Below, in pieces: positions 61 through 7,003 of a DNA stretch of 18,650 nt. The notes under the pieces were generated by a model, which searched no databases, was not told where the DNA came from, and saw nothing but the letters and a program-made list of their open reading frames with translations. Made by a program: the position numbers and the translations under genes. The DNA comes from Oscillospiraceae bacterium (GTDB taxonomy: Bacteria; Bacillota_A; Clostridia; Oscillospirales; Oscillospiraceae). The DNA lies in contig JAFVPA010000036.1 in NCBI GenBank assembly GCA_017505505.1, positions 1 to 18,650 on the forward strand. Reading direction: 5' to 3'. Position 1 is the stretch's first letter, and the number at the start of each line of letters is the position of its first letter.

Positions 61-131
61 TGTTGGGTGGGGGCTTGCCCCCACCGCGACCCGCTGACGC
101 AAAAAACGGTGGGGGCAAGCCCCCACCCTAC
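61..131. repeat. 71-bp palindromic intergenic element, TGTAGGG-type family
   Basis: The ends are inverted repeats: GGGTGGGGGCTTGCCCCCACC on the left is matched by its complement on the right, so each end is also a small hairpin. Size and layout match the 73-bp elements at 14253 and 15288 (outer GGG-rich ends, inner CTTGCCC hairpin, an A-rich centre after GC). It stops 29 bases before the fchA start, just ahead of its ribosome binding site. Confidence 0.75.
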
Positions 132-159: not shown

Positions 160-780
160 ATGGATATGACTCTGGCTACCTGCCGTGAATTCGTTTCCGT
201 TCTGGCCTCCGACGCTCCCGCTCCCGGCGGCGGCGGTGCCGCTGCTCTGGTTGGTGCCATCGGTACCGCTCTGGGCAACATGGTCGGCTCCCTGACCGTT
301 GGCAAGAAGAAATACGCCGCTGTTGAGGCTGAGATCATCGACCTGAAGGCCAAGTGCGACGCCCTGCAGACCGAGCTGCTGAACCAGGTGGAGATGGACG
401 AGATCAACTTCCTGCCCCTGGCCAAGGCCTACGGCATCCCCAAGGACGACCCCAACCGTGACAAGGTCATGGAAGAGGCCACCATCATCGCCTGCTCCAC
501 TCCCATGAAGATCATGGAGCTGAGCTGCCAGGCCATCGAGTACATCGCCGTCTTTGCCGAGAAGGGCAGCCGTCTGGCTGTTTCTGACGCAGGCTGCGGC
601 GCTGTGTGCTGCAAGGCTGCCCTGCAGGCCGCATCCCTGAACGTGTTCATCAACACCAAGACCCTGAAGAACCGGGAAGTGGCAGAAGAAATGAACGCCA
701 AGGCTCTGGGCATGCTGGATAAGTACGGCGCCATGGCCGACGAGATCTTCAATTCCGTCAAGGCCGGCTTCGGCGTATAA
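160..780 (+). CDS. fchA: Methenyltetrahydrofolate cyclohydrolase / formiminoTHF cyclodeaminase family protein (FchA)
   Basis: This 206-residue cytosolic protein belongs to the small single-domain FTCD-C family. In acetogens this family interconverts 10-formyl-THF and 5,10-methenyl-THF in the methyl branch of the Wood-Ljungdahl pathway; the same fold acts as formiminoTHF cyclodeaminase in histidine or purine breakdown. The N-terminus carries the family's glycine-rich stretch APAPGGGGAAALVGAIGTAL (about residues 20-39), followed by the helical body typical of the fold. Length is normal for the family. The start is set by AAAGGAGA about nine bases before the ATG. folD follows 117 bases downstream on the same strand, which favours the folate C1 role over histidine degradation. 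Codon use is strongly biased, as expected for a highly expressed gene. No clear promoter is visible, so it may be read from upstream. Confidence 0.88.
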   Translation: MDMTLATCREFVSVLASDAPAPGGGGAAALVGAIGTALGNMVGSLTVGKKKYAAVEAEIIDLKAKCDALQTELLNQVEMDEINFLPLAKAYGIPKDDPNRDKVMEEATIIACSTPMKIMELSCQAIEYIAVFAEKGSRLAVSDAGCGAVCCKAALQAASLNVFINTKTLKNREVAEEMNAKALGMLDKYGAMADEIFNSVKAGFGV

Positions 781-795: not shown

Positions 796-897
796 AGACA
801 ATTCGTGACGAACCTGGGAGGTGAACGTTACTCCTCTTGGGTACCGCTCGAATCGTTATATTGTATTTTTAATCTGTTTTAAAGGAGATTATTATAT

Positions 898-1770
898 ATG
901 GCTAAGAGATTACTGGGCAAGGAAGTCAACGAGGCTCTGGTTGCTGCTCTGCAGGGCCGTACCGCTGCTCTGAAGGAAAAGGGCGTTGTCCCCACCCTGG
1001 GCATCATCCGTCTGGGCGAGAACCCCTCTGACCTGTCCTATGAGAAGGGCGCAACCAAGCGCGCTGAGGAAGTGGGTGTTGCCATCAAGAACTACATCCT
1101 GCCCGAGTCCGCAACCAAGGAAGAAGTCCTGGCTGTCATCGACCAGGTCAACGCCGATGACTCCGTCCACGGCGTTCTGATGTTCCGCCCCCTGCCCAAG
1201 CACCTGAAGGCTGACCAGGACGAGATCTGTAACCGTCTGGCTCCCAAGAAGGACGTGGACTCCATGACCCACATGTCCAACGCCGGTGTCTTTGAAGGCC
1301 AGGACCTGGGCTATGCTCCCTGCACTCCCGCAGCCTGCATGGAGATTCTGGATCACTACGGCATTGACTGCAAGGGTAAGAAGGCTGTCGTTATCGGCCG
1401 TTCCCTGGTGGTCGGCAAGCCCGCTGCTATGATGCTGATGCAGAAGAACGCTACCATCACCATCTGCCATACCCGTACTGTTGACCCCGCTGCCATCTGC
1501 CGTGAGGCTGATATCATCATCTCCGCAGCCGGTGTTCTGAACAGCCTTACCAAGGACTTCGTCCGTCCCGGCCAGGTTGTCATCGATGTTTCCATGAACT
1601 GGAACCCCGAGAAGATCACCTCCAAGGGCAAGGGCGGCATGTCCGGCGATGCCATCTTCGACGAGGTGGAGCCCATCGTCGAGGCCATCACCCCCGTTCC
1701 CGGTGGTGTCGGCGCCGTCACCACCTCTGTGCTGATGAAGCACGTTGTGGAAGCTGCTGAGAAGGTATAA
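898..1770 (+). CDS. folD: FolD-family methylenetetrahydrofolate dehydrogenase, cyclohydrolase residues altered
   Basis: This 290-residue protein is a full-length FolD homologue, the NAD(P)-dependent enzyme for 5,10-methylene-THF to 5,10-methenyl-THF. Visible marks are the folate-site tyrosine (Tyr48), KDVD (118-121), the nucleotide-binding loop GRSLVVGKP (about 167-175) and the C-terminal TPVPGGVG signature. Two expected catalytic residues are missing. In an ungapped alignment to E. coli FolD the catalytic lysine of YxxxK is Ala52, and the QLPLP motif reads FRPLP, so its glutamine is Phe96. Both residues are required for cyclohydrolase activity in bifunctional FolD/MTHFD enzymes. The aspartate (Asp121) is kept. 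It therefore looks like a dehydrogenase only, working with the adjacent fchA product. The start has AAAGGAG about ten bases upstream. A clean terminator follows the stop. Confidence 0.9.
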   Translation: MAKRLLGKEVNEALVAALQGRTAALKEKGVVPTLGIIRLGENPSDLSYEKGATKRAEEVGVAIKNYILPESATKEEVLAVIDQVNADDSVHGVLMFRPLPKHLKADQDEICNRLAPKKDVDSMTHMSNAGVFEGQDLGYAPCTPAACMEILDHYGIDCKGKKAVVIGRSLVVGKPAAMMLMQKNATITICHTRTVDPAAICREADIIISAAGVLNSLTKDFVRPGQVVIDVSMNWNPEKITSKGKGGMSGDAIFDEVEPIVEAITPVPGGVGAVTTSVLMKHVVEAAEKV

Positions 1771-1786
1771 TTCTTTTCCGAAATTT

Positions 1787-1815
1787 AGGAGACTGCTTCG
1801 GCAGTCTCCTTTTTT
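1787..1815 (+). terminator. Intrinsic terminator of the fchA-folD unit
   Basis: A perfect 10-bp stem (AGGAGACTGC, TTCG tetraloop, GCAGTCTCCT) runs into a T-run. It begins 17 bases after the folD stop codon. Confidence 0.93.
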
Positions 1816-1826
1816 GTACGCTTATG

Positions 1827-2391
1827 TCATTCGAACAGGAAGGCATCGGCCTGCCGGGCTTCCAGCCGCTCTGCTTGGTGCGGAAGTGGTGCTCCAGAAT
1901 GGGAAGCAGCAGGATGCACACCAGCGTGGCGGTAAAGCCTCCGTTGTACAGGCAGAAGCCGCCGTGAAGGTTGGGCACCATGGTGACCATGTAGTAATGG
2001 AGGATGGCGGCGAACAACCCATAGCGCCAGCCGTACTTGTCGGAGATAGGTGTCAAACCGTTGGCGAAGCACAGTCCCACCATCATGGCCTGAGCGCTGA
2101 GGCTGGGTGAAGACACCTTCGGCCAGGTGCGCTACCAGCTGGCTGATGTGGGAGGCGATGGCATAGCCGGTCATGATGCACCAGACCCATGTTCAGGAAG
2201 GTGGCGGCGTAACCACCTACGGAGAAAAAATTGGTGGAGGCTTTGGTGGGGCTGTTCAATATCCTCCAGAAGCCCGGGAGCATATCGGCCCGGTCAGGCA
2301 TGAAGAAGGCGGCCACGAGGAAGCACAGGCTGAAGTAGGAAAAGAACAGCTTCAGGAACGTGTTTTCTGACAGGTGGTTCAGTCGTTTCAT
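1827..2391 (-). pseudogene. Degenerate DUF1576 membrane protein gene (internal deletion plus frameshift)
   Basis: Reading the minus strand from 2391, the first 70 or so residues (MKRLNHLSENTFLKLFF... to AATFLNMGLV) match the N-terminus of the intact DUF1576 protein at 2844-4175. The sequence then jumps, in another frame near 2174, to a stretch resembling residues about 334-354 (GYAIASHISQLVAHLAEGVF). It shifts frame again near 2116 to match residues about 358-430 (SAQAMMVGLCFANGLTPISDKYGWRYG..., MVPNLHGGFCLYNGGF). So about 263 codons of the middle are gone and at least two reading-frame breaks remain. The residues that survive are well conserved, suggesting recent decay of a once functional paralogue. 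The gene is divergent from the intact copy. The 3' boundary is approximate, taken from the TGA at 1827 in one frame. Confidence 0.88.
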
Positions 2392-2843
2392 GGGAGATCT
2401 CCGGCTGATAATAGATATCATGCATTAAACCATATTTTAAACATAAAGTCCAGCAAAATAGGGATAAAATGGCATTATGCGGATAAAATTGGGAGAAATT
2501 CCAATTTGGATAAGATTTCTCAGCCAAATTGCCCAATACACCCATATCTTGCTGGGATTGCCGCTTTTTGAATGAAAAATATCGATACTTTTATTACAAT
2601 AAGAAGGATCCTCTTCCATGACTGACGGATGAAAGTGGGTAACCACGGAGAAGCGCTGACGACGCAATGGGATCAGCACGTTTATTGCTTTGATTTGCGG
2701 GCAATTGCTCAGGAGAATTTGATATAAATGGATTGATATGTGGATATCGATATTTTTATTGACAAAAATAGGGTTATTTACTAAAATAATACTATCCATT
2801 CGGAGAAGAGAAATCTGATATCAGTGAAAATGGAGGGGAAAGT
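2392..2843. other. AT-rich 452-bp divergent spacer between the broken and intact DUF1576 genes
   Basis: No convincing gene is present. It is much richer in AT than its neighbours. Visible structure: GGATAARAT three times (2462, 2481, 2508); a perfect 7-bp inverted repeat AAATTGG/CCAATTT with an 8-bp spacer (2486-2507); and a 17-bp sequence, ATATCGATAYTTTTATT, occurring at 2579-2595 and again at 2744-2760 with one mismatch. The second copy overlaps the first bases of the -35 box of the intact gene. These look like regulator binding sites, but no regulator is identified. Confidence 0.6.
2759..2787 (+). promoter_or_regulatory. SigA-type promoter of the intact DUF1576 gene
   Basis: TTGACA (2759-2764) and TAAAAT (2782-2787) are separated by 17 bp. 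Transcription would start near 2794, about 50 bases before the ATG. A 17-bp repeated box ends at 2760 and overlaps the -35 element, which suggests control by a DNA-binding protein. Confidence 0.8.
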
Positions 2844-4175
2844 ATGAAAAAGATTAGAATGCTTTCTGAAAGTGCTTTTCTGAAAGTGCTCTTTGCCTTC
2901 TTCGCAGCATCGTTTTTGGTCGCATCTGTTTTTATGCCTGACAGGGATCAGATGTTTACGGGTCTGTGGCAGATCCTGTCCCAGCCCAGCAAGCTGACCT
3001 GCAGCTATTTCGCCATCGGCGGATATGCAGCCACCTTCCTGAATATGGGCCTTGTGGCTTTGATCTGTTTGGGACTGTTCCTGGTTTTTAAGGGAGTGCC
3101 CAATAACGCCTCCACGTTGGCATTTATTCTGACTACCGGATTTGGCTCTTGGGGCATCAACATTCTGAATATCTGGCCCACCGTCTTTGGTGTCATGCTC
3201 TACGGCATCGTGAAGAAGGAGAAATTTGGCGGCCTGGTGAATGCCATGCTGTTCTCCACAGGTATTGCTCCGCTGCTTACCGATCTGATGATTCGCTATC
3301 CTCACGCAGAGGTGGTGGGTTTCAATGCTGCCGGTATCGCATTGTCCTTGCTGGTTGGTGGTATCATTGGTTTCTTCCTGCCTGCAGGTCTGGCTAATTC
3401 CCCTAAGGTACACAAGGGCTTTGATCTGTATTCTGCAGCACTGCCCATTGGCATGACTGCTTTCTTTCTGAATGCAACATTGTATAAAACCATGGGTGTT
3501 GCACTGCCTGCCGGTGCTGACGGCGCACAGCTGCAGGTGGCATCTGCGGCTATTGTAAATACCTTCTGTCTGATTCTGTTCGGTCTGTGTGTGGTGTTTG
3601 CCTTTGCATTAGGCTGTAAGCCCAAGGATTACTGGAAGCTACTGAAGGATCCCAATCTGGTCACGAATTTCTCTTCCACCTATGGCAATGCTACTTTCCT
3701 GATGAACGTGGGTGTTTTTGGCCTGTTTATTCTGGCCTACTACAATGCAATTGGCGCGACCTTCAACGGTGTTACTTTCGGCATCATTTTCTGCATGCTC
3801 TCCACCTGCAATTCCGGCTCCCATCCCGGCAACGTCTGGCCTATCATGCTGGGCTATGTTGTTGCCTCTACGGTATTCGGCTGGCTGTCTTCTCTGGCGG
3901 GCGGTACCTTCACGCTGGCCATCAATGCCCAGGCTATCTGCGTGGGCCTGTGCTATGCCAACGGTCTCAGCCCAATCGCCGACAAGTACGGCTGGAAGTA
4001 CGGTTTCCTGGCTGCTGTTATGCATTACCTGCTGGTGACCTCCGTGCCCAATCTCCATGGCGGTTTCTGTCTGTACAATGGCGGCTTCACCGCAGCGCTG
4101 ATCTGCATTATTCTGATTCCCGAGCTGGAGCGTTTCGCCAAGACCAAGGACGAGCGTAAGGCATTGAAGAAGTAA
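2844..4175 (+). CDS. DUF1576 family polytopic membrane protein
   Basis: A 443-residue, very hydrophobic integral membrane protein with about ten predicted membrane segments. I recognise it as the DUF1576 family, whose function is unknown to me. An internal duplication can be read directly. LWQILSQPSKL...GGYAATFLNMGLVAL (41-73) is echoed by YWKLLKDPNLV...YGNATFLMNVGVFGL (263-294), and GSWGINILNIWP (101-112) by GSHPGNVWP (325-333). This two-fold repeat is common in transporters, so a transport role is plausible but unproven. Conserved polar motifs in the second half include CNSGSHPGN (322-330), DKYGWKYG (380-387) and PNLHGGFCLYNGGF (402-415). The start follows GGAGGGG. It has its own promoter and terminator, so it is monocistronic. 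A decayed paralogue lies divergently upstream. Confidence 0.85.
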   Translation: MKKIRMLSESAFLKVLFAFFAASFLVASVFMPDRDQMFTGLWQILSQPSKLTCSYFAIGGYAATFLNMGLVALICLGLFLVFKGVPNNASTLAFILTTGFGSWGINILNIWPTVFGVMLYGIVKKEKFGGLVNAMLFSTGIAPLLTDLMIRYPHAEVVGFNAAGIALSLLVGGIIGFFLPAGLANSPKVHKGFDLYSAALPIGMTAFFLNATLYKTMGVALPAGADGAQLQVASAAIVNTFCLILFGLCVVFAFALGCKPKDYWKLLKDPNLVTNFSSTYGNATFLMNVGVFGLFILAYYNAIGATFNGVTFGIIFCMLSTCNSGSHPGNVWPIMLGYVVASTVFGWLSSLAGGTFTLAINAQAICVGLCYANGLSPIADKYGWKYGFLAAVMHYLLVTSVPNLHGGFCLYNGGFTAALICIILIPELERFAKTKDERKALKK

Positions 4176-4389: not shown

Positions 4390-4647
4390 ATGGAAACGCG
4401 GGTCGCCGTTATGAGCATCATTGTGGAGAACGGGGAAATGGTGGAAAAACTCAATTCCATTCTCCATGAATATGGTGAGTATATCATTGGCCGCATGGGA
4501 ATTCCCTACCGGAAGCGGAAGGTCAATATCATCGCCATTGCCCTGGATGCGCCCCAGAATACCATTTCCTCTCTGGCGGGCAAGGTCGGCAGCTTAAGCG
4601 GCATATCTGTCAAGACCGCATATTCCGGTGTGGTGAACACCGACTGA
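4390..4647 (+). CDS. TM1266-like putative iron-only hydrogenase system regulator
   Basis: An 85-residue ACT-like protein. The text METRVAVMSIIVENGEMVEK, LHEYGEYIIGRMGIPY (about 26-41) and the ending SLSGISVKTAYSGV match the family named for Thermotoga TM1266, called a putative [FeFe]-hydrogenase system regulator because it is often found near hydrogenase maturation genes. The family consists of this one domain, so it would have to bind a small molecule or a protein partner, since no DNA-binding domain is visible. It is first in an operon with an ABC importer, with 16 bases to the next gene. No hydrogenase or maturase gene is in the window, so the regulatory role here is inferred from the family only. 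The start is set by GGAGG seven bases upstream. Confidence 0.82.
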   Translation: METRVAVMSIIVENGEMVEKLNSILHEYGEYIIGRMGIPYRKRKVNIIAIALDAPQNTISSLAGKVGSLSGISVKTAYSGVVNTD

Positions 4648-4663
4648 AGGAGAGGTATATTTT

Positions 4664-5701
4664 ATGAAGATCCAAAAACTGTTTGCACTGGTTCTGGCAT
4701 TTGCACTGGTCCTGTCCATGGCCGCCTGCGGCCAGCAGGCTCCCCAGGAGACCACCGCTGCCCCCACCGAAGCCGCTGTGGAAGTTCCCACTGAAACTGC
4801 GGCTCCTGCTCCCAATCCTGTCAACGTCATGGTCCTCAACGGCACCACCGGCTTTGGTATGGCAAACCTGATGGATGCCGCCACCAAGGGCGAGGCCGGG
4901 CAGGACTATAACTTCACCGTGGAGACCGATGCCAGCAATATCGTGGCAGGCCTGGTCAACGGTTCCGTGGACATTGCCGCCCTGCCCACCAACGCTGCTG
5001 CCGCTGTCTACAACAAGACCCAGGGTGGTGTCCAGGTGCTGGCCCTGAATACCCTGGGCGTGCTGTATCTGGTCACGGATGGTTCTGTTACCATCGAAAG
5101 CATGGCAGACCTGGCCGGCCAGACCGTTTACGCGCCTGCCCAGAATCCCAGCTTCATCTTCCAGCACATCGTGGAGGCCAACGGCCTGACCGATGTGACC
5201 ATTGACAATACTTACGCCCAGCCTGCGGATCTGAACACCGCCGTGGCTGCCGGGGAAGTCTCCATCGCCGTGCTGCCGGAGCCTATGGTCACCGTGGCCC
5301 GGTCCAAGAACCCTGATCTGGTGGTGGCGCTGGACCTGACTGCCGAGTGGGATAAGGTCTCTCCCGCCGGTTCCCTGGTTCAGGGCTGTGTGGTGGTCCG
5401 CAAGGACTTCGTTCTGGAGAATGCTGCCGCAGTGAACACCTTCCTGGGTGAGTACGGCGCATCCATCGAGGCGCTGACCTCTGACATTGAAGGTACTGCC
5501 GCCAAGATCGAAGCCAATGGTATCTTCACCAAGGCAGCCGTGGCTGCCAAGGCCATCCCCAACTGCAACGTCTGCTTCATCACCGGAAGCGCCATGCAGG
5601 AGGCTCTGGCAGAGTTTATGAACATCATGTTCGCCGTGGCGCCTGCCTCCGTTGGCGGTGCTGTCCCCGGTGACGACTTCTACTGCATCCTGAACGGATG
5701 A
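4664..5701 (+). CDS. ABC importer substrate-binding lipoprotein (NMT1/THI5-like)
   Basis: A 345-residue secreted lipoprotein. A Lys-containing hydrophobic signal peptide ends in the lipobox LSMAAC with Cys22 as the lipidated residue, followed by a low-complexity Pro/Ala/Thr linker (about 24-50). The mature domain starts near VNVMVLNGTTGFG and shows the phrases of the NMT1/THI5 and aliphatic-sulfonate binding family: LVNGSVDIAALPTNAAAAVY, LADLAGQTVYAP-type text and AGEVSIAVLPEP. Members bind thiamine-pyrimidine precursors, sulfonates, nitrate or other small anions; the substrate cannot be told from sequence. It is cotranscribed with a permease whose ATG overlaps its stop codon (ATGA) and an ATPase. 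A good AAGGAGAGG site precedes the start. Confidence 0.88.
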   Translation: MKIQKLFALVLAFALVLSMAACGQQAPQETTAAPTEAAVEVPTETAAPAPNPVNVMVLNGTTGFGMANLMDAATKGEAGQDYNFTVETDASNIVAGLVNGSVDIAALPTNAAAAVYNKTQGGVQVLALNTLGVLYLVTDGSVTIESMADLAGQTVYAPAQNPSFIFQHIVEANGLTDVTIDNTYAQPADLNTAVAAGEVSIAVLPEPMVTVARSKNPDLVVALDLTAEWDKVSPAGSLVQGCVVVRKDFVLENAAAVNTFLGEYGASIEALTSDIEGTAAKIEANGIFTKAAVAAKAIPNCNVCFITGSAMQEALAEFMNIMFAVAPASVGGAVPGDDFYCILNG

Positions 5702-6447
5702 GCGGGGGCCGGAACCGAACCGTAAAAAACCTGCTGGCCACCCTCTTTTGGGTGGCCGCATGGCATATTCTGTCCTTGACTATGGGAAATCCCTTGCTGC
5801 TGCCCACACCGCTGCAGGTCCTGACAAGGCTCTGGCAACTGATGGGGACAGGGGACTTTTGGTCCATCACCGCCGTGTCCATCGGCCGTATCCTGCTGGG
5901 CCTGATTTCTGCCATGGTACTGGGTGTGGTGCTGGCGGTGCTGAGTGCAGCCAGCAGTATCGCGGATGCCCTGGTGGCCCCGGTGATGACGGTGATCCAG
6001 GCGACCCCTGTGGCTTCCTTTGCCATTCTGGTGCTGATCTGGCTGGACCGGGATTATGTTCCCGTACTGATCTGCGGCATGATGGTGCTGCCGGTGGTGT
6101 GGAGCAATGTCTGTGCCGGTATCCGGGAGACGGATAAGCAGCTGCTGGAAATGGCAAGGGTCTACCGGATGCCAAAGCGGCGCATCCTTCGGCGCATCTA
6201 TGTGCCCTCTGTGCTGCCCTATTTCCGGGCGGCCTGCTCCAGTGCTCTGGGCTTGGGCTGGAAGGCGGGGATCGCCGCCGAGGTGCTGACGGTGCCGAAG
6301 CAGTCCATGGGACGGATGATCGCGGATGCCAAGCTGTATCTGATGACGGAAGACCTTTTCTCCTGGACCCTGGCGGTGATTGTCCTGAGCCTGCTGCTGC
6401 AAAAGGTCATGCTGTATCTTTTGAAGGGGAGGGCTGGCCGTGCTTAA
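5698..6447 (+). CDS. ABC importer permease (NMT1/sulfonate-type)
   Basis: A 249-residue inner-membrane permease of the binding-protein-dependent type with about six hydrophobic segments. The cytoplasmic coupling (EAA) loop is visible at about 150-175: LEMARVYRMPKRRILRRIYV followed by PSVLPYF. The normally invariant glycine of the loop is an arginine here (VYRMPK). The N-terminal part LWQLMGTGDFW and the following long helix resemble SsuC/ThiX-like permeases. It overlaps the lipoprotein gene by four bases and the ATPase gene by eight, so the three are translationally coupled. It pairs with the lipoprotein at 4664 and the ATPase at 6440. Confidence 0.88.
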   Translation: MSGGRNRTVKNLLATLFWVAAWHILSLTMGNPLLLPTPLQVLTRLWQLMGTGDFWSITAVSIGRILLGLISAMVLGVVLAVLSAASSIADALVAPVMTVIQATPVASFAILVLIWLDRDYVPVLICGMMVLPVVWSNVCAGIRETDKQLLEMARVYRMPKRRILRRIYVPSVLPYFRAACSSALGLGWKAGIAAEVLTVPKQSMGRMIADAKLYLMTEDLFSWTLAVIVLSLLLQKVMLYLLKGRAGRA

Positions 6448-7003
6448 GCTGACGAACATTTCCCATCGCTATGGAGACCGCCCGGTGCTGAAGGACATTT
6501 CTCTTACATTGTCCCGTGGGCAAAGGCTTGCCCTCATGGGTCCCTCCGGCTGCGGTAAGACCACCCTTCTGCGGATCGCGCTTGGGCTGCTGAAGCCTGT
6601 TTTCGGTACGGTGGAGAATACTTTTGCCAAAACGGCTGTGGTGTTCCAGGAACCCCGGCTTCTGCCTTGGCGGACGGCACTGGAAAATGTGAATGCAGTG
6701 CTGTCGGATTCTCCCGCAACGGTGGAACAGGCCCGGAAGCAGCTGGCTCTTTTGGGGCTGGCAGATGCGGCGGACAAGTATCCCCGGGAGTTATCCGGCG
6801 GTATGCAGCAGCGCGTAGCCCTGGCCCGGGCTTTGGCCCTGGACGGGGACCTGCTGGTGCTGGATGAGCCCTTCAAGGCGATGGATGAAGCATTGCGCCG
6901 ATCGGTCATGGCCCAAGTGGCGACGACGCAGGCTGCCATTTTGCTGGTGACCCACGATGAAGCAGAAGCCGCAGCCCTGGGCTGTGAAATCATAAAGCTA
7001 TAA
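6440..7003 (+). CDS. ABC importer ATP-binding protein, compact form
   Basis: A 187-residue nucleotide-binding subunit. All core motifs are present: Walker A GPSGCGKTT (34-42), Q-loop VVFQEPRLLPW, signature LSGGMQQR, Walker B LLVLDEPF and the switch histidine in LLVTHDEAEA. It uses a GTG start inside the permease gene (8-base overlap). It is clearly shorter than usual ATPases of this family (about 240-260), ending soon after the H-loop and so lacking the C-terminal extension. A shortened beta-strand region between Walker A and the Q-loop is also apparent. No frameshift is visible: a strong terminator follows directly, so the short form looks genuine. Confidence 0.88.
   Translation: MLKLTNISHRYGDRPVLKDISLTLSRGQRLALMGPSGCGKTTLLRIALGLLKPVFGTVENTFAKTAVVFQEPRLLPWRTALENVNAVLSDSPATVEQARKQLALLGLADAADKYPRELSGGMQQRVALARALALDGDLLVLDEPFKAMDEALRRSVMAQVATTQAAILLVTHDEAEAAALGCEIIKL

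What the first reader, a model, noticed from the sequence alone, without database searches (positions are those of the whole stretch)
898..1770. FolD without the cyclohydrolase lysine and glutamine, encoded next to a FchA
Aligned without gaps to E. coli FolD between the GxNP and EEVG landmarks, the catalytic lysine of YxxxK is Ala52 and the glutamine of QLPLP is Phe96 (FRPLP). Asp121 and the NAD(P) loop are kept. In bifunctional FolD/MTHFD enzymes that Lys and Gln are needed for the cyclohydrolase but not for the dehydrogenase step. The gene immediately upstream encodes FchA, which can do the missing step. The pair looks like a split of a normally bifunctional enzyme, possibly a clade-wide solution giving separate control of the two steps in acetogenesis. 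Lys50 and Lys54 flank the lost lysine, so a shifted lysine is a caveat.
Basis: partly seen in the sequence, partly recalled or inferred. Interest (0 to 1): 0.72.

Follow-up and report, generated by a model that had tools for sequence, protein, structure and literature searches.

The report
Dehydrogenase-only FolD paired with FchA
A bacterium's folate enzyme, normally a two-in-one catalyst, has lost the residues for its second step, and a neighbouring gene very probably does that step; this division of labour is already known in clostridia, but here it is tied to a sequence signature kept in a large bacterial lineage.

Summary
The FolD at 898-1770 has Ala52 and Phe96 where bifunctional enzymes have the YxxxK lysine and the QLPLP glutamine; Tyr48, Asp121 and the NAD(P) loop are kept. 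All 80 close relatives fetched have Ala52, 79 of 80 Phe96, and fchA lies just upstream in 78 (the other two start at contig ends). In 49 of 50 whole draft genomes of this group it is the only FolD found. In 147 genomes of the order, all 20 with a hydrophobic/hydrophobic FolD hold an fchA homologue, against 1 of 119 with other FolDs, and that one sits beside a formiminotransferase gene. The type is an old clade across the phylum sampled, not a local loss. E. coli mutants make dehydrogenase-only activity the likeliest reading: K54N has no detectable cyclohydrolase. A shifted lysine is unlikely: neither flanking lysine is conserved, and Lys54 is as common in canonical enzymes. The tie to acetogenesis is not supported: 17 of those 20 genomes show no full-strength AcsC/AcsD match. 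Monofunctional clostridial dehydrogenases with separate FchA were already known, so this is a new member of a known kind; I saw no paper linking this residue signature to FchA. No activity was measured.

The parts
160..780 (+). fchA, methenyl-THF cyclohydrolase (206 aa)
   Evidence: PF04961, 194 bits; nearest solved structure 7vg4, methenyl-THF cyclohydrolase, E 7.6e-34, against 4.5e-15 and 1e-14 for cyclodeaminases; NF045657 scored 165.6, under its cut-off of 275
898..1770 (+). folD-type methylene-THF dehydrogenase, predicted monofunctional (290 aa)
   Evidence: PF00763 and PF02882; AlphaFold2 model, mean pLDDT 81.5; TM-score (by query length) 0.83-0.89 to the 50 listed PDB chains, all FolD/MTHFD
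1051..1053 (+). codon 52, GCA Ala, at the place of the catalytic Lys of YxxxK (human Lys56, E. coli Lys54)
1183..1185 (+). codon 96, TTC Phe, at the place of the Gln of QLPLP (human Gln100, E. coli Gln98)
1258..1260 (+). codon 121, Asp, the kept folate-binding aspartate (human Asp125)
883..887 (+). ribosome-binding-site-like AGGAG before folD
   Evidence: read from the sequence
1787..1810 (+). terminator-like stem (10 pairs) with T-run after folD
   Evidence: 4 such sites were found in 1-2900 against 2.6 (sd 1.8) in shuffles, so its position, not the count, is the argument

Best explanation
The 898-1770 protein is a monofunctional 5,10-methylene-THF dehydrogenase of FolD fold. Its cyclohydrolase site has been emptied: the lysine and glutamine of bifunctional FolD are both hydrophobic, and other positions differ systematically too. 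The neighbouring FchA interconverts 10-formyl-THF and 5,10-methenyl-THF; FolD interconverts methenyl-THF and methylene-THF with NAD(P)H. In most testable near relatives fhs stands just upstream, so fhs-fchA-folD would encode formate to methylene-THF. Shown here: residues, their conservation, sole-FolD status in draft genomes, co-occurrence, gene order. Inferred: the activities, and that the genes are expressed together.
For: Residue loss is fixed in 80 of 80 (position 52, Ala) and 79 of 80 (position 96, Phe; one Leu) relatives. 49 of 50 draft genomes of the group have a single PF00763 match; the 50th has one further match of 21.1 bits, under the cut-off. Order sample: 20 of 20 hydrophobic-type genomes have PF04961, 1 of 119 other FolD genomes does, and that one (G108) has a formiminotransferase next to it. 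Of 175 genomes in which FolDs were read, 86 have a Lys-less FolD (two broken or partial genes included): 76 have fchA, 8 have no fchA but a second, Lys-bearing FolD, 2 have neither. fhs lies directly upstream of fchA in 53 of 65 testable near relatives. E. coli K54N: no detectable cyclohydrolase, about 19% dehydrogenase; Q98H: about 1% and 8% (PMC5688156, passages). Dehydrogenase residues kept in both types at 93% or more: Tyr48, Asp121, Gly167, Arg168, Ser169, Gly173, Pro175. Purifying selection; intact predicted fold. Precedent: a study of C. perfringens FolD, FchA and Fhs (title in a reference list; its abstract, recalled and not seen here, reports a monofunctional FolD).
Against: No activity was measured. 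On the tree the change is one or a few events, so the co-occurrence is not many independent tests: 1-2 independent pairs on well-supported branches, sign test p 1. G485 and G344 have Lys-less FolD, no fchA found and no Lys-bearing FolD read. An fchA homologue does not by itself predict the loss: in the phylum sample 28 Lys/Gln FolD genes lie in fchA-positive genomes (partly by my choice of genomes), and 6 of 13 such fchA loci examined show no formiminotransferase near by. FchA scores under its NCBIfam cut-off, and that model does not part cyclohydrolases from cyclodeaminases. E. coli Q98H also damages the dehydrogenase, so a FolD with Phe96 must compensate elsewhere. A simulation paper on MTHFD2 doubts that the lysine is the base, though it cannot exclude a catalytic role, and gives it a role in binding for the dehydrogenase step (PMC9173628, passages).
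Confidence: 0.85

Rival explanations
1. FolD is still bifunctional: Lys50, Lys54 or another residue replaces the lost lysine.
For: In the near group Lys50 is kept in 76 of 80 and Lys54 in 74 of 80.
Against: Lys54 corresponds to E. coli Lys56 and is Lys in 66 of 90 canonical FolDs beside the catalytic lysine; 11 of 69 hydrophobic-type FolDs have lysine at neither place. Both lie two residues from 52 in one helix, 43-59, of the model, so by helix geometry they point elsewhere (inference; no coordinates were available). The partner glutamine is gone as well.
Confidence: 0.07
2. The upstream gene is not the partner: it is a formimino-THF cyclodeaminase, and methenyl-THF is hydrolysed spontaneously or by another protein.
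For: FTCD_C genes in 7 of 13 loci examined from canonical-FolD genomes have a formiminotransferase beside or one gene away; NF045657 is not reached; spontaneous hydrolysis was invoked for E. coli mutants (PMC5688156, passages).
Against: No formiminotransferase (phmmer E 1e-15) was found in any of the 300 FolD-locus pieces then held or in the window; the closest solved relative is a methenyl-THF cyclohydrolase by about 19 orders of E-value; gene order fhs-fchA-folD.
Confidence: 0.06
3. FolD acts on another pterin or has become a regulator, not a methylene-THF dehydrogenase.
For: Several positions differ systematically from canonical FolD.
Against: It is the only FolD found in nearly every genome of the group, Asp121 and the NAD(P) loop are kept, and it sits with fchA and often fhs.
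Confidence: 0.02

Closest known systems
Monofunctional methylene-THF dehydrogenase with separate cyclohydrolase in clostridia (C. perfringens FolD/FchA/Fhs, Aluri et al. 2016: title seen in reference lists, abstract recalled; C. formicoaceticum, Ljungdahl et al. 1980: title seen; Peptostreptococcus productus: called monofunctional in PMC6443876, passages)
   Same: Dehydrogenase and cyclohydrolase on separate proteins; in C. perfringens with Fhs as well.
   Different: Here inferred from sequence only. Whether those characterised enzymes carry the same Lys/Gln losses was not checked, because I had no named sequences for them.
Bifunctional FolD/MTHFD (E. coli FolD, human MTHFD1, C. jejuni FolD 3p2o)
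   Same: Fold, two Pfam domains, Tyr48, Asp121, NAD(P) loop.
   Different: Catalytic Lys and Gln both replaced by hydrophobic residues; positions 276, 63, 49, 170, 171 and 273 also differ systematically from canonical clostridial FolDs.
Yeast MTD1 (1edz), monofunctional NAD-dependent dehydrogenase
   Same: FolD-related and monofunctional (title of Barlowe and Appling 1990 in a reference list; that 1edz is this enzyme is recalled).
   Different: Only a remote match (E 1e-8 over residues 39-189).
K/E-type FolD with fchA (relatives with truncated names beginning Desulf, Peptococcaceae, Carboxydocel)
   Same: In fchA-positive genomes in 11 of 11 cases, but 7 of these were fetched from genomes picked for having fchA.
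   Different: Keeps the lysine and has Glu for Gln; fchA lies downstream in the 7 cases where it is adjacent.

Membership tests
Bifunctional FolD (dehydrogenase/cyclohydrolase) | FolD fold with THF_DHG_CYH and NAD(P)-binding domains | tested here: met
Bifunctional FolD (dehydrogenase/cyclohydrolase) | Lysine of YxxxK | tested here: not met
   Ala52; 80 of 80 relatives Ala
Bifunctional FolD (dehydrogenase/cyclohydrolase) | Glutamine of QLPLP | tested here: not met
   Phe96; 79 of 80 relatives Phe, one Leu
Bifunctional FolD (dehydrogenase/cyclohydrolase) | Curated NCBIfam cut-off of a bifunctional FolD model | tested here: not met
   30 families hit; none of the 25 shown reaches its cut-off, best 255.4 against 396 bits
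Monofunctional methylene-THF dehydrogenase | Substrate aspartate, tyrosine and NAD(P) loop kept | tested here: met
   Tyr48, Asp121, Gly167, Arg168, Ser169, Gly173, Pro175
Monofunctional methylene-THF dehydrogenase | Separate cyclohydrolase gene in the genome | tested here: met
   fchA at 160-780; 20 of 20 such genomes in the order sample have PF04961
Monofunctional methylene-THF dehydrogenase | Dehydrogenase without cyclohydrolase activity | not testable with these tools
   needs purified protein
FchA (methenyl-THF cyclohydrolase) | FTCD_C domain, closest to a solved cyclohydrolase | tested here: met
FchA (methenyl-THF cyclohydrolase) | NF045657 equivalog cut-off | tested here: not met
   165.6 of 275 bits; none of 10 further FTCD_C proteins scanned reached it either

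The most novel reading that the evidence does not exclude
The two losses are a gain: a pair of hydrophobic residues with a wider pocket redesign makes a dry site that protects methenyl-THF from hydrolysis and hands it to FchA, perhaps in a complex encoded by the fhs-fchA-folD unit. A large clostridial clade annotated as bifunctional would then be a distinct dehydrogenase class, recognisable by residues 52, 96, 276 and 49, and expected to be insensitive to carolacton, since E. coli K54N no longer binds it (PMC5688156, passages).
Probability: 0.2. Interest if true: 0.6.

Novelty: new member of a known kind. Interest (0 to 1): 0.42.

Why it matters
It turns a biochemical fact known for a few clostridia into a rule that can be read from sequence. 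It would correct the annotation of 'bifunctional' FolDs in such Clostridia (a relative 94% identical bears that name), would tell metabolic modellers which genomes depend on FchA for purine and formate traffic, and predicts which FolDs carolacton-type inhibitors should not bind. It also argues against a tempting inference: this split is not a mark of acetogenesis.

Tried and rejected
Acetogenesis as the driver: rejected. 3 of 20 hydrophobic-type genomes in the order sample have a full-strength CdhD-type match. Among the other 17, G141 and G162 have short matches of 24.9 and 31.3 bits, over Pfam's cut-off, inside frames of 816-821 aa, which I did not count; G063, G083, G100, G128, G171 and G176 have weaker ones. 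Draft genomes may miss genes, so 3 of 20 is a lower bound. Fhs is near-universal in the order (143 of 147), so it does not explain the split either.

Pseudogene or degenerate copy: rejected by dN/dS 0.075-0.142 over nine pairs. Two more pairs, L027 and L032, gave 'not computable' and 0.652; I dropped them because the script compared them without codon alignment and their dN is far above what their protein identity allows, which points to a frame offset.

Statistical co-occurrence as independent evidence: tried and not granted; one or a few changes on the tree.

The first fhs-adjacency count used too tight an overlap limit and missed true neighbours; replaced.

Residue-level geometry was not possible: the tools give no coordinates. 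The phage search gave 55 records, all under 60% identity, and was not pursued. An NCBIfam scan of nine neighbours in L014 and a Pfam scan of ten in L041 showed no folate genes near those copies. A search meant to reach named acetogen FolDs gave names for the K/E type only.

Full report
Observation. The ORF at 898-1770 (+) encodes a 290-residue FolD-family protein (PF00763 and PF02882). Its residues are Tyr48, Lys50, Ala52, Lys54, Phe96, Asp121. HMMER alignments to C. jejuni FolD and human MTHFD1 place Ala52 on human Lys56, Phe96 on human Gln100 and Asp121 on human Asp125. These correspond to E. coli Lys54, Gln98 and Asp121 (E. coli Tyr50, Lys54, Lys56 and Asp121 are listed in PMC6443876, passages; Gln98 in PMC5688156, passages).

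The gene upstream (160-780) is an FTCD_C protein (PF04961). Its best solved relative is a methenyl-THF cyclohydrolase (7vg4, E 7.6e-34), well ahead of formimino-THF cyclodeaminases (4.5e-15 and 1e-14). It does not reach the cut-off of the NCBIfam FchA model (165.6 of 275 bits). None of 10 other FTCD_C proteins scanned did either, and one from a locus with a formiminotransferase (L304) scored highest of them, so that model does not decide. Both genes have ribosome-binding-site-like sequences and a terminator-like stem follows folD at 1787-1810.

Conservation near by. A scan of genome contigs gave 159 relatives, of which the best 80 were kept; nearly all bear titles of uncultured Oscillospiraceae, Clostridia or other Bacillota, many from animal guts. 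Ala52 is in 80 of 80, Tyr48 and Asp121 in 80 of 80, Phe96 in 79 with one Leu (L076); Lys50 in 76 (Arg in 4), Lys54 in 74 (Thr 3, Asn 2, Ala 1). fchA was found within 0.6 kb upstream in 78 of 80; in the other two (L028, L054) folD starts at base 3 and base 83 of the contig. Of 50 of these genomes searched whole, 49 have one PF00763 match; the other (G014) has a second, partial match of 21.1 bits, under the cut-off. dN/dS of folD over nine close pairs is 0.075-0.142 (two further pairs dropped, see Tried and rejected).

The order. In 147 genomes of the same order PF00763 was found in 139 and PF04961 in 23. Whole-domain PF00763 scores are split: 127 bits and more for canonical genes, 122 bits or less for the others. 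All 20 genomes with a low-scoring FolD read as hydrophobic at 52 (Ala or Ile) and at 96 (Phe or Leu): 19, plus G004, which is L005. All 20 have PF04961. Of the other 119 genomes with FolD, one (G108) has it. Two more PF04961 genomes (G124, G172) show no FolD; in G124 the contig ends at the fchA of an fhs-fchA pair, and in G172 the gene stands next to a formiminotransferase. G094 has both a canonical FolD and a variant beside fchA. I read 51 canonical-scoring genes of this sample; all 51 are Lys/Gln. The remaining 69 or so canonical-scoring genes were not read.

The phylum. In 299 genomes PF00763 was found in 292 and PF04961 in 175. I read 106 of the 299: every FolD match in 76 genomes with the weakest best match (G004 had been read), and one FolD each in 30 high-scoring genomes chosen because they have PF04961. 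The canonical group here is therefore biased towards fchA-positive, and second copies in other genomes were not read. Hydrophobic at both sites: 50 genes, 49 in fchA-positive genomes, 30 with fchA beside them (27 upstream, 3 downstream). Lys/Gln: 39 genes, 28 in fchA-positive genomes, one with fchA beside it. Lys/Glu: 11 genes, all in fchA-positive genomes, 7 with fchA downstream. A further 21 have Glu at 121, usually with Ile or Gln at 52. Broken or partial genes (L268, L269) and two odd ones (L182, L256) fall outside these classes. By genome, of the 175 read in both samples (69 and 106), 86 hold a FolD without the lysine, L268 and L269 counted: 76 with fchA, 8 without fchA but with a second, Lys-bearing FolD, and 2 with neither (G485, G344). 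Of the 89 genomes with Lys-bearing FolD only, 37 have fchA, many by my choice.

Exceptions on the other side. Of 13 FTCD_C loci fetched from canonical-FolD genomes (L301-L313, not all such genomes), 7 have a formiminotransferase gene beside them or one gene away, G108 among them; three of those (L301, L304, L306) also have an amidohydrolase, as in histidine degradation. The other 6 show none within the piece held and stay unexplained. No formiminotransferase was found in any of the 300 FolD-locus pieces then held, or in the window (pieces of about 2.5-21 kb).

Evolution. In a tree of 179 FolDs the hydrophobic type needs 2 changes (57.7 in shuffles). With the motif columns left out, Lys-less against Lys-bearing needs 7 (59.1 in shuffles). 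The type is therefore an old lineage distinct from the canonical FolDs of the same order. By the same token the co-occurrence with fchA is a long-kept association and not many independent events: only one or two independent pairs can be drawn on supported branches, and the sign test has no power. Transfer or old paralogy was not resolved. Both trees are quick searches with several long branches.

Other residues. Comparing 76 hydrophobic-type with 60 canonical FolDs (nine deep-branching canonical rows left out), positions 52, 96 and 276 separate the groups fully to two decimals, and 63, 49, 170, 171 and 273 strongly; Tyr48, Asp121, Gly167-Arg168-Ser169, Gly173 and Pro175 are shared at 93% or more. 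So the protein is redesigned and not just damaged. The AlphaFold2 model (30 sequences; mean pLDDT 81.5, low at 125-135) has TM-scores of 0.83-0.89 to the 50 listed PDB chains, all FolD/MTHFD.

Shifted lysine. Window Lys54 corresponds to E. coli Lys56, which canonical enzymes hold together with the catalytic lysine: 66 of 90 canonical FolDs have Lys at this place, against 54 of 69 of the hydrophobic type; 11 of those 69 have lysine at neither 50 nor 54. In helix 43-59 of the model, residues two apart face away from residue 52 (inference). Rescue is unlikely.

Mechanism. E. coli K54N has no detectable cyclohydrolase and about 19% of dehydrogenase; Q98H about 1% and about 8% (PMC5688156, passages). 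Hence Ala52 alone predicts loss of cyclohydrolase. Phe96 would hurt an E. coli-type dehydrogenase, so the other changes probably compensate (inference). A computational study of MTHFD2 sees the lysine mainly as a binding residue but does not exclude a catalytic role (PMC9173628, passages). FchA then supplies the 10-formyl-THF to methenyl-THF exchange. fhs lies directly upstream of fchA in 53 of 65 testable cases in the near set, 8 of 13 in the order set and 6 of 26 in the phylum set. In the window only 159 bases precede fchA, so this could not be tested there.

Acetogenesis. Full-strength CdhD-type matches (E under 1e-70) occur in 8 of 147 genomes of the order sample, 3 of them among the 20 hydrophobic-type genomes; three of the 8 (G054, G091, G149) have only a canonical-scoring FolD. 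In the window's own group 41 of 50 have CdhD matches over the cut-off, and AcsD and part of AcsC are in the window. So these bacteria are probably acetogens, but the FolD split does not follow acetogenesis.

Known work. Separate cyclohydrolase and dehydrogenase proteins in clostridia are established: titles on C. formicoaceticum and A. woodii enzymes (reference lists), a statement that the Peptostreptococcus productus enzyme is monofunctional (PMC6443876, passages), and a study of C. perfringens FolD, FchA and Fhs (title in reference lists; its abstract, recalled, calls FolD monofunctional). PMC7219735 says that some microorganisms have FchA as a separate cyclohydrolase (passages). PMC12449052 (passages) lists fchA among acetogen criteria for ruminant genomes and says FolD was not analysed for want of sequences. 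In the listings of searches and the passages I read, I saw no paper that ties loss of the lysine and glutamine to fchA; long lists were shown in part, and the library lacks most subscription journals.

Noticed in passing
L183, L189, L209, L212; also L195, L204, L205, L207, L208: FolD paralogues with Glu at position 121, mostly Gln or Ile at 52; in L183, L189 and L209 in tandem with a Lys/Gln FolD, several in genomes without fchA: perhaps another kind of divided FolD.
   Followed up: partly
L273, L278, L279, L287, L290, L293, L300: FolD with the lysine kept but Glu for the glutamine (VELPLP-like) and fchA directly downstream; relatives have truncated names beginning Desulf, Peptococcaceae, Carboxydocel.
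   Followed up: partly
window 1718-2421 (-) and 2844-4175 (+): A DUF1576 protein downstream of folD, and on the opposite strand short frames that resemble its two ends by eye, as of an inverted decayed copy. DUF1576 also follows folD in L041.
   Followed up: no
window 65-127: A GC-rich palindrome (GGTGGGGGC..GCCCCCACC) occurs twice just before fchA.
   Followed up: no
window 4390-7003: TM1266-type putative regulator named for iron-only hydrogenase systems, next to an Ssu/Sao-like ABC transporter (substrate-binding protein, permease, ATPase).
   Followed up: no
L268 (G465): A FolD of this type broken by an in-frame stop beside an fchA, in a genome with another, intact copy of the type (L192).
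   Followed up: no
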